Assembly (NCBI RefSeq): GCF_001610875.1
Contig: NZ_CP011272.1
Location: 4,631,988-4,695,987 of the forward strand
Length of the DNA: 64,000 nt
Direction: 5' to 3'
From: Pirellula sp. SH-Sr6A
GTDB lineage: Bacteria > Planctomycetota > Planctomycetia > Pirellulales > Pirellulaceae
Program-made: the position numbers and the translations under genes
In this document: piece after piece, positions 24,212-29,995 of the stretch
How positions within the stretch are numbered: position 1 is the stretch's first letter
Layout of the letters: each line of letters starts with the position of its first letter
The notes under the pieces: generated by a model
Database searches by the model: none
Seen by the model: the letters and a program-made list of their open reading frames with translations, nothing else
What the model was told of the DNA's origin: nothing

Positions 24212-24236
24212 CCCTGACTAGATTTGCTAGTCAGGG
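24212..24236. terminator. Perfect hairpin between convergent genes
   Basis: CCCTGACTAG (24212-24221) and CTAGTCAGGG (24227-24236) form a perfect 10-bp stem with a 5-base loop, just after a T6 run (24205-24210). It overlaps the stop codon of the minus-strand gene. No T-run follows the plus-strand hairpin, so it is not a textbook intrinsic terminator, though its position between converging genes suits a transcript end. Confidence 0.45.
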
Positions 24237-25577
24237 TGCTGGGACGCAGCGCCGCGTCGCGTCCCACACAAGATACTTTTGCTGATCGATCGCCTCGGAT
24301 AACTTCTGGCAAAGAGCTTTGTTTTCCTCGTCCGCCAGTTCGTCTGCTTTCTTCAGATAGGCGATGGCATCATCGGTTCGTTGCATTGCTGCGCACGCAT
24401 TCGCGATCACGAAGTACGAGAACCAATCGGGGTCGGGAGTGAGATCGAGAGCGGTGCTCGCCTCCTTGAAAGCCTTTTCGCGAGCAGAGGAGCTTGCGTC
24501 GCCTCTTCTTAAATGCAAAAGCGAGAGTGTGCGATGGGCGGGGATTCGAAAATCTTTCTCGTCGGTAAGATTCTTCCACTCCGATTCGGCGCTGCCCCAA
24601 TTGTTCTCACCGGCCAACCACCTTGCTTTGATCCATCGGTCGCACGGCGAAAGCGACTCCAGTTTCGCGATCCTCGCATTCAAGATCTTGGCTTCCCGAT
24701 GTTTTTTCATCGCGGAAAGCAATTGGAGTCGCAGGTGAAGTACGGTGGATTCAAAATACATCGGACCTTGCGCAGCTCGTTCCAGCCAAGTCCAAGCTTC
24801 GTCAAGGTTGCCGAGACGTTCGTAAAGGAGCGAGCACGCGATCATGGCAGCGTAATCGGACTCGGATGCCTGCAATAACACTTGAAGGCGTCCCCTTATT
24901 TCCTCCTCGGAAAATCGGCGTTCCGGATCGGTGTGAGGCCAATACCTCAATAGAAAGCCAGCATAATCGACCTGCCATTGAAGCCATTTTTGATGCAGAT
25001 CGAGCATCTCTTGAATGGTATTGATGCGGCGATTGACGACAGAACGGGTAACCGCATCAAGCTGCCTTAGTTCCTCGTTTCGGCTGAGTACGTTCAAGTC
25101 CGATTGGGCTTTCGCAAGCACGACTTCTCTTAATTGCTGACCTGCCTGCGCGGCGTTGAAATTTACATTGTTCCGATCGTTCCTCGCGGCCCTGATTTCG
25201 TCATTCATGTCCGTTGCGAGACTTCCCAAGAAAGCGGAAGCTTCCAATGCAGCGAGTTGCATGGACATCTGCCGGGATTGCTCGCGTCGGATACGTACCC
25301 AATCCACCTCCGTTTGCTGAAGTGAATTCTGAAGCTGCTGAAGCCTCGTCTGCATTATTCCATGCTTCTTTACATGCTCACGAACATCTGCTGTGGTTTG
25401 CTCCAATGCACTTGTGGGTGAGGATTCGATACTGAGACCAGCGGCTTTATCCTCGGGAGCGTTACCTCGTGCCACTTCGGCGCCGACGGGCATATCTTGT
25501 GCATGGACAGCCCTTTCGACTCCCTGCCAAAAACACCCCCAACAAAGTAGAAAGAGGCCCCCATACCGCAGTGACAT
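24231..25577 (-). CDS. Secreted coiled-coil / TPR-like protein of unknown function
   Basis: About 448 residues if started at the ATG at 25577, which directly precedes a signal-like stretch (MSLRYGGLFLLCWGCFWQGV, cleavage near VHAQ); a longer form starting at 25658 is possible. The middle is coiled-coil (RLQQLQNSLQQTEVDWVRIR). The C-terminal half carries TPR-like helices: SLLYERLGNLDEAWTWLERA and NACAAMQRTDDAIAYLKKAD. I do not recognise a named family. It is divergent from the Hint-domain gene, 285 bp apart; a shared promoter region and a common envelope role are possible. Confidence 0.7.
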   Translation of the reverse strand: MSLRYGGLFLLCWGCFWQGVERAVHAQDMPVGAEVARGNAPEDKAAGLSIESSPTSALEQTTADVREHVKKHGIMQTRLQQLQNSLQQTEVDWVRIRREQSRQMSMQLAALEASAFLGSLATDMNDEIRAARNDRNNVNFNAAQAGQQLREVVLAKAQSDLNVLSRNEELRQLDAVTRSVVNRRINTIQEMLDLHQKWLQWQVDYAGFLLRYWPHTDPERRFSEEEIRGRLQVLLQASESDYAAMIACSLLYERLGNLDEAWTWLERAAQGPMYFESTVLHLRLQLLSAMKKHREAKILNARIAKLESLSPCDRWIKARWLAGENNWGSAESEWKNLTDEKDFRIPAHRTLSLLHLRRGDASSSAREKAFKEASTALDLTPDPDWFSYFVIANACAAMQRTDDAIAYLKKADELADEENKALCQKLSEAIDQQKYLVWDATRRCVPAP

Positions 25578-25862
25578 GCCGAAACAACCAGGCATACTGG
25601 AAGCGTGGAGATAGGGAAATGAAACCAGTCGGACACAGGACAGGATTTGCTTGCTCATGGCGTGCGTCGAACTCCCACAAAATTGGTCGACTGCAGAAAT
25701 AACAGATTTTATTCCGCCAGCTGTTGGCGCGACAATTCCCGATTCTATACACTTGACAGAGTCAGTGCTTTATTATTCAAGCAGTTCACGCCAGATCTTG
25801 CTGCTGTCAACTGCTTGACCTCTTCTTGTATTCAGTTGCCCGAAGGCACGAAGGAGTTGGCG

Positions 25863-27779
25863 ATGCGAACGCATTCGAAGGGTCGTCACATGAGCCGCTT
25901 GTTGGCTCTCGGTTTGGTTCTTCAGGTCGGTACGGGTTCGATTCTCTATGGCGACGGGCCAGATCAAGAATCGAGCAGCTCGTCCCGATACGGTTCCGTG
26001 CAAGATGTTTTGCGGGATGAGTCGAAAGGTGTCCCACTGAACCGCTCGAGCTTGCTCGCCAGCATACTAAGCCACAATGAAGATGCATCAAAACGAGCCG
26101 TATCGGTCTTATCGTGGCAATCGGGTCTCATCCAATTGGAGAAGGATTGGAAATCAGTTGAAGAGATCACCGAAGAAGACCTTAAATCAAGCCTTCGGAA
26201 ATACAGGAAGCAACGCGGTGATCAAGTTTTAGATTTAGAGGGCCATCGTTCTATGGCTCTTTATTGCACCTCTCAAAATTGGCTGCCTCAAGCCAAGGCG
26301 CATTGGTACGGCGTCCTTTCGTTTCAACCCAACCATGTCGAAGCGCGAAAAGCGCTTGGGTTTCGCCGCATCGGGAATCGATGGGTTAGCACCGAGGAAT
26401 GGCAATCCATTCTCGATCAGAATTCCGAGACTTTGGCTTCCCTTAAGAAATGGTATCCGCGGGTAAGCGAAGTGGCTTCGCAAATCGATCGCGGTGGCAA
26501 AGAGACCGTGAAGGCGATTGAGTGGCTTCAAAAGGTAGAGGACCCAGGAGTCGTGCCAGCTCTCCATGCTGTCGCCGTGCGAAACTCGGGAGATACCGCG
26601 GTCCACCTCGTCAATACGATTCGTCGATTCCAGACCAAGGAGGCGTGTTCTGCTCTTGCAGATCTGGCCATCGCGGAGCCGAGCTCTCCAACCTCGGGTT
26701 CTGCGATCAAGGGATTGAAAGAAGTCGAAAGCGAATGGTATGTTCCCGAACTTCTCGACTTGATGGCATCGGACATCGAAGTACAGAATCAGATCGTCAC
26801 ACGACCTAATGGCGCGCTGGTATTGCAAACCATTGGTCAACAGGAATTGCAAAACACGAATGAGGTCATCCAGATCGATAAGATTTTAACGGCGGGTAGT
26901 GGCCCCAACATCGCGCCGCGAATGGCAGCCACCAATCGCCGACTGGGTCTAAGATCGGGCCGCAACGTGGCTTCGATCCAGTCCCCCACGAACGCAGTGG
27001 CGGCTAGTATCGCAATGGATGAGGCGGAACGGTTTGCGAAAGCGAATACCGCAGCGGCTGCAAATTCCAACGCCGAACTTCGGGAAAAGCAAAGTAAGAT
27101 CGCCGTGGTACTGCGAGCCACGTCCGGTCAAAAGCTGGATGACTCCGCGCAGACTTGGTGGAATTGGTGGCAGAAACAACAAGAAATCGAAGTCTTAGGC
27201 CCCAAAGAAATCAATTACCAATACGGTCAAGATTATTCCTCGCCGGTATACACTCCACGCCCCGTGCAAGTTTCGTTCACGCTACCAGAAAACACATGCG
27301 AATGCTTGGTAGCGGGTACAACAGTACAAACCGAAACGGGACTTGCATCGATCGAATCGATTCGCATCGGGGACCAAGTTGTCTCGCAGAACATTCTGAC
27401 CGGGGAACTCTGTCTCAAGCCAGTGATTCGAACAACTCGTCGAGAACCCGCTCCGACCCGCAGTATGACACTGGAGTCCGGCGAATCGATCGTCAGCACA
27501 CTTGGCCACCCCTGGTGGGTGACTGGAAAAGGTTGGATCAAGACCAAGGACCTTCAACCGGGCATGGCGATTCGAACGACCAGTGGAAATGTGTTGATCA
27601 AAGAGGTTTCTTCCGCCAAGGAAGAAGTCACTTACAACCTCGTCGTGGCTGACAACCACAATTATTTCGTGGGGGAAAAGCGACTCCTCTCCTTCGACGC
27701 AGGCGAGTTGATTCCGACTTTCCAAAAAGCGCCCGGTCTTCCCGCGGAACCGGTCAAACCCCATCTTGCTTCTCGCTAG
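25863..27779 (+). CDS. Exported HEAT-like repeat protein with a C-terminal Hint domain
   Basis: 638 residues from the ATG at 25863, which has a strong RBS (AAGGAG, about 8 bp before) and is followed by a signal peptide (SRLLALGLVLQVGTGSILYG). The N-terminal 450 residues are helical and repeat-like, with a TPR-like stretch and then HEAT-like motifs (VVPALHAVAVRNSGDTAV). Residues about 481-620 form a Hint (Hedgehog/intein) domain: Cys481 in CLVAGTTVQTETG, IESIRIGDQVVS, the block-B-like TLGHPWWVTGKGW, and VADNHNYFVGEK. The usual closing His-Asn is absent (LLSFDAGE instead), so intein splicing looks impossible, though N-terminal thioester chemistry could remain. Nothing toxin-like follows. Proteins annotated as polymorphic-toxin-type Hint are common in planctomycetes. 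Confidence 0.8.
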   Translation: MRTHSKGRHMSRLLALGLVLQVGTGSILYGDGPDQESSSSSRYGSVQDVLRDESKGVPLNRSSLLASILSHNEDASKRAVSVLSWQSGLIQLEKDWKSVEEITEEDLKSSLRKYRKQRGDQVLDLEGHRSMALYCTSQNWLPQAKAHWYGVLSFQPNHVEARKALGFRRIGNRWVSTEEWQSILDQNSETLASLKKWYPRVSEVASQIDRGGKETVKAIEWLQKVEDPGVVPALHAVAVRNSGDTAVHLVNTIRRFQTKEACSALADLAIAEPSSPTSGSAIKGLKEVESEWYVPELLDLMASDIEVQNQIVTRPNGALVLQTIGQQELQNTNEVIQIDKILTAGSGPNIAPRMAATNRRLGLRSGRNVASIQSPTNAVAASIAMDEAERFAKANTAAAANSNAELREKQSKIAVVLRATSGQKLDDSAQTWWNWWQKQQEIEVLGPKEINYQYGQDYSSPVYTPRPVQVSFTLPENTCECLVAGTTVQTETGLASIESIRIGDQVVSQNILTGELCLKPVIRTTRREPAPTRSMTLESGESIVSTLGHPWWVTGKGWIKTKDLQPGMAIRTTSGNVLIKEVSSAKEEVTYNLVVADNHNYFVGEKRLLSFDAGELIPTFQKAPGLPAEPVKPHLASR

Positions 27780-27991: not shown

Positions 27992-28894
27992 ATGGTTAAA
28001 GTTCGAGACTTCCTGGGACCATACCGATTGGCCCGCTTGATCCGCCTCGGAAGTACTTGTCAGGTCTGGGAAGGAATCAAAGACGACGGCAATCGCTATG
28101 CCCTCAAAGTGCTGCGTCCCGAGCAACGAGGGAATAAAGAAGAAATCGGCTTCCTCAAACATGAGTTCGAGATCGCCAGCAATCTCCATCACAAGAACAT
28201 CATCAAGCTGGTCGAGTACGTCACCGACGCCGACACCCCTTTCATCGTCCTTGAACTCTTCAGCGAAATCAACTTGAAGCAAGCGTTGCGAAAAGGTCCC
28301 GAACCGATCGCTTACATGCTGGCCTCGATCATCGAACAAATCAGCGAAGCCCTCTACTACTTCCATAGCAAGGGTTATGTGCATTGCGATATCAAGCCCG
28401 ATAACATTCTCGTCAATCGCGATGGCTTGGTAAAACTCATCGATTTCACCATCGCCAAAAAAGCCAAAACAGGGCTGAGCAAACTCTTCGGTGGCAAAAG
28501 CAAAGTCGAAGGGACCCGCTCCTACATGTCCCCCGAGCAAATTCGCGGGCAAGGCCTCGACCCACGCAGCGATATCTATTCCCTCGGCTGCATGTTCTAC
28601 GAAATGCTCGTCGGCAAACCCCCGTTCACGGGCAATACCCCAAACGACCTGTTGAGCAAACACCTCACCGCAGCGGCACCGTCCGTGCTGGTCGTCAACG
28701 ACAACGTCACCCCCGAATTCAACAACGTCATCCGCAAAATGATGTCGAAAAAGCCCGAGGACCGACCTCAATCGATGTGGGATGTTCTCAAAATCATTCG
28801 CGCTACACCCATATTTAAAAAACCACCGAGGAAACCTGACGTCTCGGTCTTCGATGACATGCCATCCGCAGGCCGAGTCGATAACCCCACGTAA
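27992..28894 (+). CDS. Serine/threonine protein kinase, cytoplasmic, atypical DFG
   Basis: 300 residues from the ATG at 27992; the frame opens further upstream but across the G-rich tract. It is a minimal kinase domain with no membrane segment or extra module. Key residues: YALKV (Lys39), the helix-C Glu near 58, YVHCDIKPDNIL with catalytic D133, K135 and N138 (HRD reads HCD), LIDFTIAKK where the metal-binding DFG is DFT (Asp151 kept), and MSPEQ as the APE-equivalent. The glycine loop is weak (IRLGSTCQVWEG). Catalytic residues are present, so it may be active, but the loops are divergent. accA follows 93 bp later on the same strand, which need not imply a link. Confidence 0.88.
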   Translation: MVKVRDFLGPYRLARLIRLGSTCQVWEGIKDDGNRYALKVLRPEQRGNKEEIGFLKHEFEIASNLHHKNIIKLVEYVTDADTPFIVLELFSEINLKQALRKGPEPIAYMLASIIEQISEALYYFHSKGYVHCDIKPDNILVNRDGLVKLIDFTIAKKAKTGLSKLFGGKSKVEGTRSYMSPEQIRGQGLDPRSDIYSLGCMFYEMLVGKPPFTGNTPNDLLSKHLTAAAPSVLVVNDNVTPEFNNVIRKMMSKKPEDRPQSMWDVLKIIRATPIFKKPPRKPDVSVFDDMPSAGRVDNPT

Positions 28895-28987: not shown

Positions 28988-29995
28988 ATGGAAACAACTC
29001 CTCCTGGCTTTGAATTCGAACAACCGATGCTCGATATCGAGATTCAACTCAAGCAGCTTGAGCAATCCCCAACCCACTCGCCGGATGAAGAACAGCAGAT
29101 CAATGCCCTTCGCCGCAAGTGGACGGAAACGACCAGAAAGATCTATGGCGAACTGAGCCCTTGGCAGATCGTCCAAGTCTCACGGCACAAAGACCGTCCG
29201 TACACCAAGGACTACCTGAATCTTGCCTTCGACGAATTCGTCGAATTGCACGGGGACAAATTCTTTGGCGACGACCGCGCCATGCTCACCGGCTTCGCCA
29301 AACTAGGTCGTCACAAAGTCATGGTCGTCGGCCACCAAAAAGGACGCACGTACAAAGAACGATCCGCTTGCCACTTCGGGTGCGCGCATCCGGAAGGCTA
29401 CCGCAAAGCCATGTCCAAGATGAAGATGGCAGAAAAGTACGGGCTCCCCATCATCTGCTTCATCGACACTCCAGGTGCTTACCCAGGAGTCGGTGCCGAA
29501 GAACGCGGGCAGGCGCAAGTCATCGCCGAGAGCATGTTCCTCATGAGCCAACTGGAAGTTCCCATCATCTGCGTGGTCATCGGGGAAGGGGGGTCCGGCG
29601 GGGCACTGGGCATTGGCGTGGGTAACAAGATCGCCATGTTGCAATATGCTTACTACTCCGTCATCAGCCCGGAGGGATGCGCAGGGATCCTTTGGAAGAG
29701 CCACCAGTTCGCTCCGAAAGCGGCCGACGCCTTGCGGTTCACCTCGTCGCACCTCTCCAAACTACGAGTGGTCGACGATGTGATCGAAGAGCCCCTCGGC
29801 GGAGCCCATCGAGACCACCACGAAATGGCCTCGCGCCTCAAAGGCTACTTGTCCAAAACCCTGGACGGACTGCTCAAAGTGCCGGCGGCGCAACTGGCCT
29901 CCGATCGCTACGAGAAGTTCCGTCGCATGGGGACCTTCCTCGAGCAACTGGAAGACGGTTCCGTCCAAACCCACGGCGCCACCATCACCGCCTAG
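28988..29995 (+). CDS. accA: Acetyl-CoA carboxylase carboxyltransferase subunit alpha AccA
   Basis: Alpha subunit of carboxyltransferase, moving the carboxyl group from biotin carrier to acetyl-CoA in the first step of fatty acid synthesis. 335 residues. The crotonase-like fold shows DIEIQLKQLEQ at the N terminus, FFGDDRAMLTGFAKL, GHQKGRTYKERSACHFGCAH, FIDTPGAYPGVGAEERGQ and GEGGSGGALGIGVGN (oxyanion-hole glycines). The partner accD is not in the window. Upstream is the kinase gene; downstream genes are convergent. Confidence 0.96.
   Translation: METTPPGFEFEQPMLDIEIQLKQLEQSPTHSPDEEQQINALRRKWTETTRKIYGELSPWQIVQVSRHKDRPYTKDYLNLAFDEFVELHGDKFFGDDRAMLTGFAKLGRHKVMVVGHQKGRTYKERSACHFGCAHPEGYRKAMSKMKMAEKYGLPIICFIDTPGAYPGVGAEERGQAQVIAESMFLMSQLEVPIICVVIGEGGSGGALGIGVGNKIAMLQYAYYSVISPEGCAGILWKSHQFAPKAADALRFTSSHLSKLRVVDDVIEEPLGGAHRDHHEMASRLKGYLSKTLDGLLKVPAAQLASDRYEKFRRMGTFLEQLEDGSVQTHGATITA

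What the first reader, a model, noticed from the sequence alone, without database searches (positions are those of the whole stretch)
25863..27779. Hint domain at the end of an exported HEAT-like protein, without the splicing Asn
A signal-peptide protein with helical repeats ends in a Hint domain (Cys481, GHPWW-type block B, NHNYFVG), but the terminal His-Asn of inteins and pretoxin Hint domains is missing, and no toxin follows. As in Hedgehog, thioester formation at Cys481 could release or modify the N-terminal repeat protein. A bacterial surface protein with autoprocessing would be new biology.
Basis: partly seen in the sequence, partly recalled or inferred. Interest (0 to 1): 0.65.

Follow-up and report, generated by a model that had tools for sequence, protein, structure and literature searches.

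The report
Planctomycete Hint domain ending in Asp
A planctomycete gene encodes an exported helical-repeat protein that ends in an intein-like self-cutting (Hint) domain with intact N-side catalytic residues, in which the usual final asparagine has become a nearly invariant aspartate; this is a widespread family with a single origin that probably cuts or transfers its front half, but no reaction has been shown.

Summary
The 638-aa protein at 25863-27779 (+) ends in a Hint domain: PT-HINT E=7e-18; the model matches the bacterial intein-like (BIL) structure 2lwy at TM 0.89, rmsd 1.8 A. Cys481, block-B Thr546/His549 and block F are present, and no toxin follows.

The main correction is that the terminal "His-Asn" is substituted, not missing. 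In 93 distinct full-length homologues the Asn position is Asp in 92. Cys481 is conserved in 91, Thr/Ser546 in 93 and His549 in 91. Only two members lose Cys, and both also lose the His. After the Asp comes a conserved 15-39-aa tail (..PT...VPG[LF]..) and the protein stops. All ~15 intact non-family Planctomycetota Hint domains examined end in His-Asn plus a C-terminal extension. The Asp forms are one clade (99/98), fused to one exported TPR/HEAT-like protein, and found in class Planctomycetia.

Most likely this is a BIL/pretoxin-derived domain specialised for thioester formation at Cys481, followed by hydrolysis or transfer of the N-terminal protein, with splicing switched off. That reaction is inferred, not shown. 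Hedgehog's catalytic Asp and sterol-binding region are absent. New variant of a known kind.

The parts
25863..27779 (+). whole gene, 638 aa: exported alpha-helical repeat protein with C-terminal Hint domain and short tail (stop codon included)
25863..25961 (+). N-terminal hydrophobic export signal (residues 1-33, approximate)
   Evidence: sequence RLLALGLVLQVGTGSILYG; hydrophobic stretch in 80 of 92 homologues
25974..27242 (+). N-terminal domain (residues 38-460): TPR/HEAT-like helical repeats, a beta section (306-342) and a conserved WWxWW element (432-436)
   Evidence: Hint-less exported homologues exist
27243..27302 (+). linker before Cys481, residues 461-480 (461-477 low confidence in the model); would contain the scissile junction E480-C481
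   Evidence: pLDDT < 50 at 461-477; residue -1 is S/E/D in 89 of 93
27303..27698 (+). Hint domain, residues 481-612
   Evidence: PF07591; 2lwy
27303..27305 (+). Cys481, predicted N-S acyl shift nucleophile
   Evidence: Cys in 91 of 93 homologues
27498..27509 (+). block B T546-L-G-H549
   Evidence: T/S 93 of 93, H 91 of 93
27633..27674 (+). block F YNLVVADNHNYFVG (residues 591-604); N592 invariant
27693..27698 (+). Phe611-Asp612 in place of the intein/pretoxin His-Asn
   Evidence: Asp in 92 of 93; His611 in 68, Phe in 10, Tyr in 7
27699..27776 (+). C-terminal tail, residues 613-638, with conserved PT...(A/V)PG(L/F); no toxin
   Evidence: (611-630 pLDDT ~90)
24231..25658 (-). head-to-head neighbour: 475-aa TPR protein with an export-signal-like N terminus; possible partner
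   Evidence: adjacent in 11 loci of related genomes, the window included

Best explanation
The gene makes an exported TPR/HEAT-like repeat protein carrying, as its last 158 residues, a Hint domain descended from the BIL/pretoxin-Hint group. Shown by sequence, structure model and conservation: the Hint fold, the N-side active site (Cys481, Thr546, His549), the single-origin Asn-to-Asp change at 612 with a conserved short tail, and the absence of a toxin. Inferred: Cys481 attacks the E480-C481 peptide bond to give a thioester; this is resolved by water or another nucleophile, so the N-terminal protein is released, or transferred, with a new C terminus. Asp612 replaces the Asn whose cyclisation would cut the C-side, so the domain does not splice. 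Its carboxylate may instead assist the attack on the thioester, and the tail docks on the Hint fold. It thus works like an N-cleaving BIL or a Hedgehog Hint domain.
For: Hint fold. Cys481 91/93, Thr/Ser546 93/93, His549 91/93, Asp612 92/93. The triplet Cys/His/Asp occurs together in 90 of 93, and the two Cys-less members (L102, L104) also lack the His, as expected if the two act together. Hint part dN/dS 0.06. Low-confidence linker just before Cys481. S/E/D at -1 in 89 of 93; in intein reports Asp at -1 often promotes N-cleavage (PMC11842431). The Asp form is one clade, separate from His-Asn Hint domains (99/98), and co-occurs with one N-terminal architecture. Published precedent: type B BILs lack the block G motif and cleave without splicing (PMC4031507).
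Against: No cleavage has been observed. The only structural data are a model, so distances between Cys481, His549 and Asp612 were not measured. Asp-terminated inteins can still cut the C-side by Asp cyclisation (PMC4031507, Fig. 3), so C-side inactivity is not certain. The role of Asp612 as an acid/base is speculation.
Confidence: 0.55

Rival explanations
1. BIL type A-like splicing or C-cleavage with Asp: Asp612 cyclises, cuts off the conserved tail, and the tail may be ligated to the N-domain through the Cys481 thioester. The short conserved tail would then be a tag added to the N-domain.
For: Inteins with C-terminal Asp can splice by Asp cyclisation (PMC4031507, Fig. 3). The tail motif PT...VPG is conserved although the residues around it vary, and tail length is tightly limited, 15-39 residues. 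His is kept at 611 in 68 of 93.
Against: The window's own clade has lost the penultimate His (Phe611). The change to Asp is nearly universal in this family and absent from the His-Asn relatives, which suits loss or change of the Asn step better than keeping it. The tail is ordered in the model, more like a docked part than a free product.
Confidence: 0.17
2. The Hint domain is catalytically silent and kept as a structural or binding module at the end of the repeat protein.
For: Two members have lost both Cys and His and yet keep the domain and Asp. The N-domain exists elsewhere without any Hint.
Against: Cys, block-B Thr/Ser and His are kept in more than 97% of members at mostly 20-45% identity; a purely structural role does not predict that.
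Confidence: 0.2
3. A polymorphic-toxin protein whose toxin was lost or lies nearby as a cassette.
For: PF07591 is the pretoxin Hint family; related Planctomycetota genomes carry many Hint genes with C-terminal extensions.
Against: All family members end 15-39 residues after Asp; no toxin or immunity gene was recognised next to it in the window; the Asp clade is separate from the His-Asn Hint domains; the intact non-family Hint domains with a C-terminal extension have His-Asn.
Confidence: 0.04
4. Hedgehog-like esterification: the N-domain is transferred to a sterol, lipid or glycan hydroxyl in the envelope, anchoring it covalently.
For: The N-side active site is intact and the C-side Asn is absent, as in Hedgehog; the model matches Hedgehog Hint 6tyy (TM 0.77).
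Against: No residue equivalent to Hedgehog Asp303 (aligned position 526 is mostly V/I/L/T/R) and no room for a sterol-recognition region (tail of 15-39 residues, against a helix-loop-helix in Hedgehog, PMC9163320).
Confidence: 0.08

Closest known systems
Bacterial intein-like (BIL) domains, type A (e.g. Clostridium thermocellum BIL4, PDB 2lwy)
   Same: closest solved structure and sequence (TM 0.89, 36% identity in the structural alignment); similar block A, B and F signatures
   Different: type A ends in His-Asn and can cut the C-side or splice (PMC4031507); here Asp replaces Asn, and the domain is a fixed C-terminal part of one protein family
BIL domains, type B
   Same: lack the intein C-terminal (block G) motif; cleave without splicing (PMC4031507, PMC7765530)
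   Different: here block G is recognisable as LS[H/F/Y]D, i.e. a type A/pretoxin-like end with a point change; no direct comparison with type B sequences was made
Pretoxin Hint, PF07591, of polymorphic toxins (PMC3482391)
   Same: all 79 members scanned match PF07591
   Different: no toxin, Asp for Asn, conserved short tail, fixed N-terminal architecture, separate clade
Hedgehog autoprocessing (Hog/Hint) domain, PDB 1at0 and 6tyy
   Same: Cys, TxxH, C-terminal placement behind a secreted N-domain, no C-side Asn
   Different: no catalytic Asp at the D303/D46 position and no sterol-recognition region (PMC9163320)
Secreted bacterial proteins with a C-terminal Hint-like domain (PMC2362128; Myxococcus, Photorhabdus and others)
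   Same: signal peptide in some, C-terminal Hint-like domain
   Different: [quoted passage not shown] species listed are not planctomycetes; sequences not compared here

Membership tests
Hint superfamily / PF07591 PT-HINT | Hint fold with blocks A, B, F above the curated cut-off | tested here: met
   65.6 bits vs 27.7; fold match to 2lwy and inteins
Intein | C-terminal Asn (or Gln/Asp) followed by a Cys/Ser/Thr nucleophile, inserted inside a host protein | tested here: not met
   Asp612 followed by Ala613 (family mostly N/V/A), C-terminal position
[quoted passage not shown]
   Asp in 92 of 93; His at 611 in 68 of 93 but Phe in the window protein
BIL type B | lacks the intein C-terminal motif while keeping the N-side motifs; cleaves without splicing | tested here: inconclusive
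   no Asn, N-side motifs intact, but a type A-like block G remains with Asp; activity not testable here
Polymorphic toxin pre-toxin module | Hint immediately followed by a toxin domain | tested here: not met
   15-39 residues after Asp in all 93 members
Hedgehog Hog domain | general-base Asp at D303/D46 | tested here: not met
   aligned position 526 is mostly V/I/L/T/R
Hedgehog Hog domain | sterol-recognition region after the Hint domain | tested here: not met
   tail of 15-39 residues
Hint autoprocessing (any) | self-cleavage dependent on the N-terminal Cys | not testable with these tools
   needs purified protein; residues are in place
HEAT repeat protein (PF13646) | match above the Pfam cut-off | tested here: not met
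   19.8 bits vs 27.7 in this protein; 48 of 79 homologues match at E<=0.01; no solved homologue at E<=0.001

The most novel reading that the evidence does not exclude
The nearly invariant Asp612 turned the intein's C-side residue into a general base that activates a specific non-water nucleophile, so the Hint domain covalently transfers the exported repeat protein onto an envelope molecule or partner protein (possibly the divergently encoded TPR protein): a bacterial, Hedgehog-like protein-ligation system specific to Planctomycetia.
Probability: 0.12. Interest if true: 0.9.

Novelty: new variant of a known kind. Interest (0 to 1): 0.52.

Why it matters
Hint domains are known as self-splicing inteins, Hedgehog processors, BILs and toxin releasers. 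A class-wide bacterial family that fixed Asp in place of the catalytic Asn once, kept the N-side chemistry, carries no toxin, and is tied to one exported protein would be a non-toxin, non-splicing use of the fold in bacteria. It makes a clear test possible: does Asn-to-Asp convert a splicing domain into a release or transfer domain, and what receives the N-domain? I found no paper describing it in the open-access library searched.

Tried and rejected
The hhalign profile comparison with Hedgehog was uninformative, so HMMER was used. The Foldseek search with the N-domain alone found only weak TPR/solenoid matches (best E 0.03). A toxin or immunity cassette downstream was looked for and not found. 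PADLOC gave no match for the Hint protein. The TPR gene as an obligate partner was rejected: relatives of it occur at a different, often ParA-linked locus in same-genus genomes in which no Hint family member was found. Promoter and terminator scans were not informative. Active-site distances could not be measured because model coordinates are not returned.

Full report
Observation. The ORF at 25863-27779 (+) encodes 638 aa. Pfam gives PT-HINT at residues 488-606 (E 7e-18) and a sub-threshold HEAT_2 match. phmmer against PDB sequences gives 2lwy, a bacterial intein-like (BIL) domain (E 2e-18), then inteins. AlphaFold2 on a 79-sequence alignment gave pLDDT 86 and pTM 0.82, with the Hint part ~97 and residues 461-477, just before Cys481, below 50. 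Foldseek matched 2lwy (TM 0.89, rmsd 1.8 A), many inteins, and Hedgehog 6tyy (TM 0.77). So the Hint call is correct.

Family. The window genome (6.53 Mb, one contig) has only this one PT-HINT protein above the cut-off. A 27-genome search of the genus found full-length relatives in 11 genomes, counting the window's own, plus a fragment in G020. The same-genus relative G010, contig 341 (44,949 bases), corresponds by length and match to JALOQZ010000002.1, 'Pirellula sp. isolate Prado168', so the window is Pirellula-like. A scan of GTDB genomes returned 138 relatives; the 80 best (79 loci) are almost all titled as planctomycetes (one is labelled only 'bacterium', L072), among them Rubripirellula, Singulisphaera, Adhaeretor, Bythopirellula, Lacipirellula, Thalassoglobus, Schlesneria and Aquisphaera. 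In a phylum-wide sample, full-length matches outside the family lay only in the same class.

The key correction. In 93 distinct full-length members, Cys481 is Cys in 91, residue 546 is Thr/Ser in 93, His549 is His in 91, Asn592 is Asn in 93, and position 612 is Asp in 92. Position 611 is His in 68, Phe in 10, Tyr in 7. So the terminus is not missing: Asn has become Asp. The Cys/His/Asp triplet is kept in 90 of 93; the two members without Cys also lack the block-B His (L102, L104). After Asp come 15-39 residues with a conserved PT...(V/A)PG(L/F); the model is confident there (pLDDT ~90 for 611-630).

Contrast with toxin-type Hint domains. In the Hint domains fetched, those with the TPR/HEAT-like N-domain end in Asp (two exceptions seen: L100 with HG, L162 with HH). 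The intact non-family ones end in His-Asn followed by a C-terminal extension. Two Asp-ending domains without a detected N-domain in the same frame (L156, L201) come from places where the N-domain lies in a neighbouring, broken frame. A tree of 62 Hint domains puts the Asp form on one side of a branch with 99/98 support, in all 200 bootstrap trees. Between the window protein and its 86%-identical sister, dN/dS is 0.06 in the Hint part, 0.11 in the N-domain and 0.16 in the tail.

The N-domain. It is a helical-repeat structure with a beta section and a conserved WWxWW element. PDB fold search finds only weak TPR/solenoid similarity. Homologues of 410-500 aa with export-signal-like N termini but no Hint exist in other genomes of the family and class, so the Hint domain looks like a C-terminal addition to an older exported repeat family.

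Neighbourhood. A divergently transcribed TPR protein with an export-signal-like N terminus (24231-25658, minus strand) lies head to head with the Hint gene in 11 loci, the window included, down to about 34% identity of the Hint protein, and in two more same-genus fragments (L177, L178). In some same-genus genomes without a Hint family member, relatives of this TPR gene sit at a different locus, often near a ParA-like gene. The pairing is therefore conserved but not obligate.

Mechanism. The residues for an N-S acyl shift are in place. The next step is open: hydrolysis (release), transfer to a nucleophile, or Asp cyclisation with tail cleavage. Published work: type A BILs end in His-Asn and can splice, type B BILs lack block G and cleave without splicing, and inteins with a C-terminal Asp can use Asp cyclisation (PMC4031507; PMC7765530). 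Hedgehog needs the Asp303 general base and a sterol-recognition region (PMC9163320); the aligned position here is mostly V/I/L/T/R and the tail is too short for such a region. I favour Cys481 thioester formation and release or transfer without splicing (0.55). No reaction was observed.

Novelty. Bacterial Hint autoprocessing and secreted bacterial proteins with a C-terminal Hint-like domain are known (PMC2362128). I found no description of an Asp-ended planctomycete clade in the open-access library; subscription papers, including the original BIL papers, were not readable. I therefore call it a new variant of a known kind.

Noticed in passing
window 24231-25658 (-): Divergent TPR protein with an export-signal-like N terminus, head to head with the Hint gene in 11 related loci; relatives of it sit near a ParA-like gene elsewhere.
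   Followed up: partly
L102 and L104 (family members): Both lack the Hint Cys and the block-B His but keep the terminal HD: natural, probably inactive versions useful as controls.
   Followed up: partly
L086, L101, L106; G031:C1:2683459-2689127; G091:C212; G145:C11: Tandem duplicated, diverged copies of the Hint protein.
   Followed up: no
G113: One genome of the same family carries 21 PT-HINT matches in several clusters; arrays of this kind look like toxin cassettes.
   Followed up: no
L179-L186, L200: Exported TPR/HEAT-like proteins related to the N-domain but without Hint; several end in a conserved LRRD-like C terminus.
   Followed up: no
window 27992-28894 (+): Pkinase-domain protein downstream, followed by an ORF resembling the acetyl-CoA carboxylase carboxyltransferase alpha subunit (28988-29995), the latter judged by eye from the sequence.
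   Followed up: no
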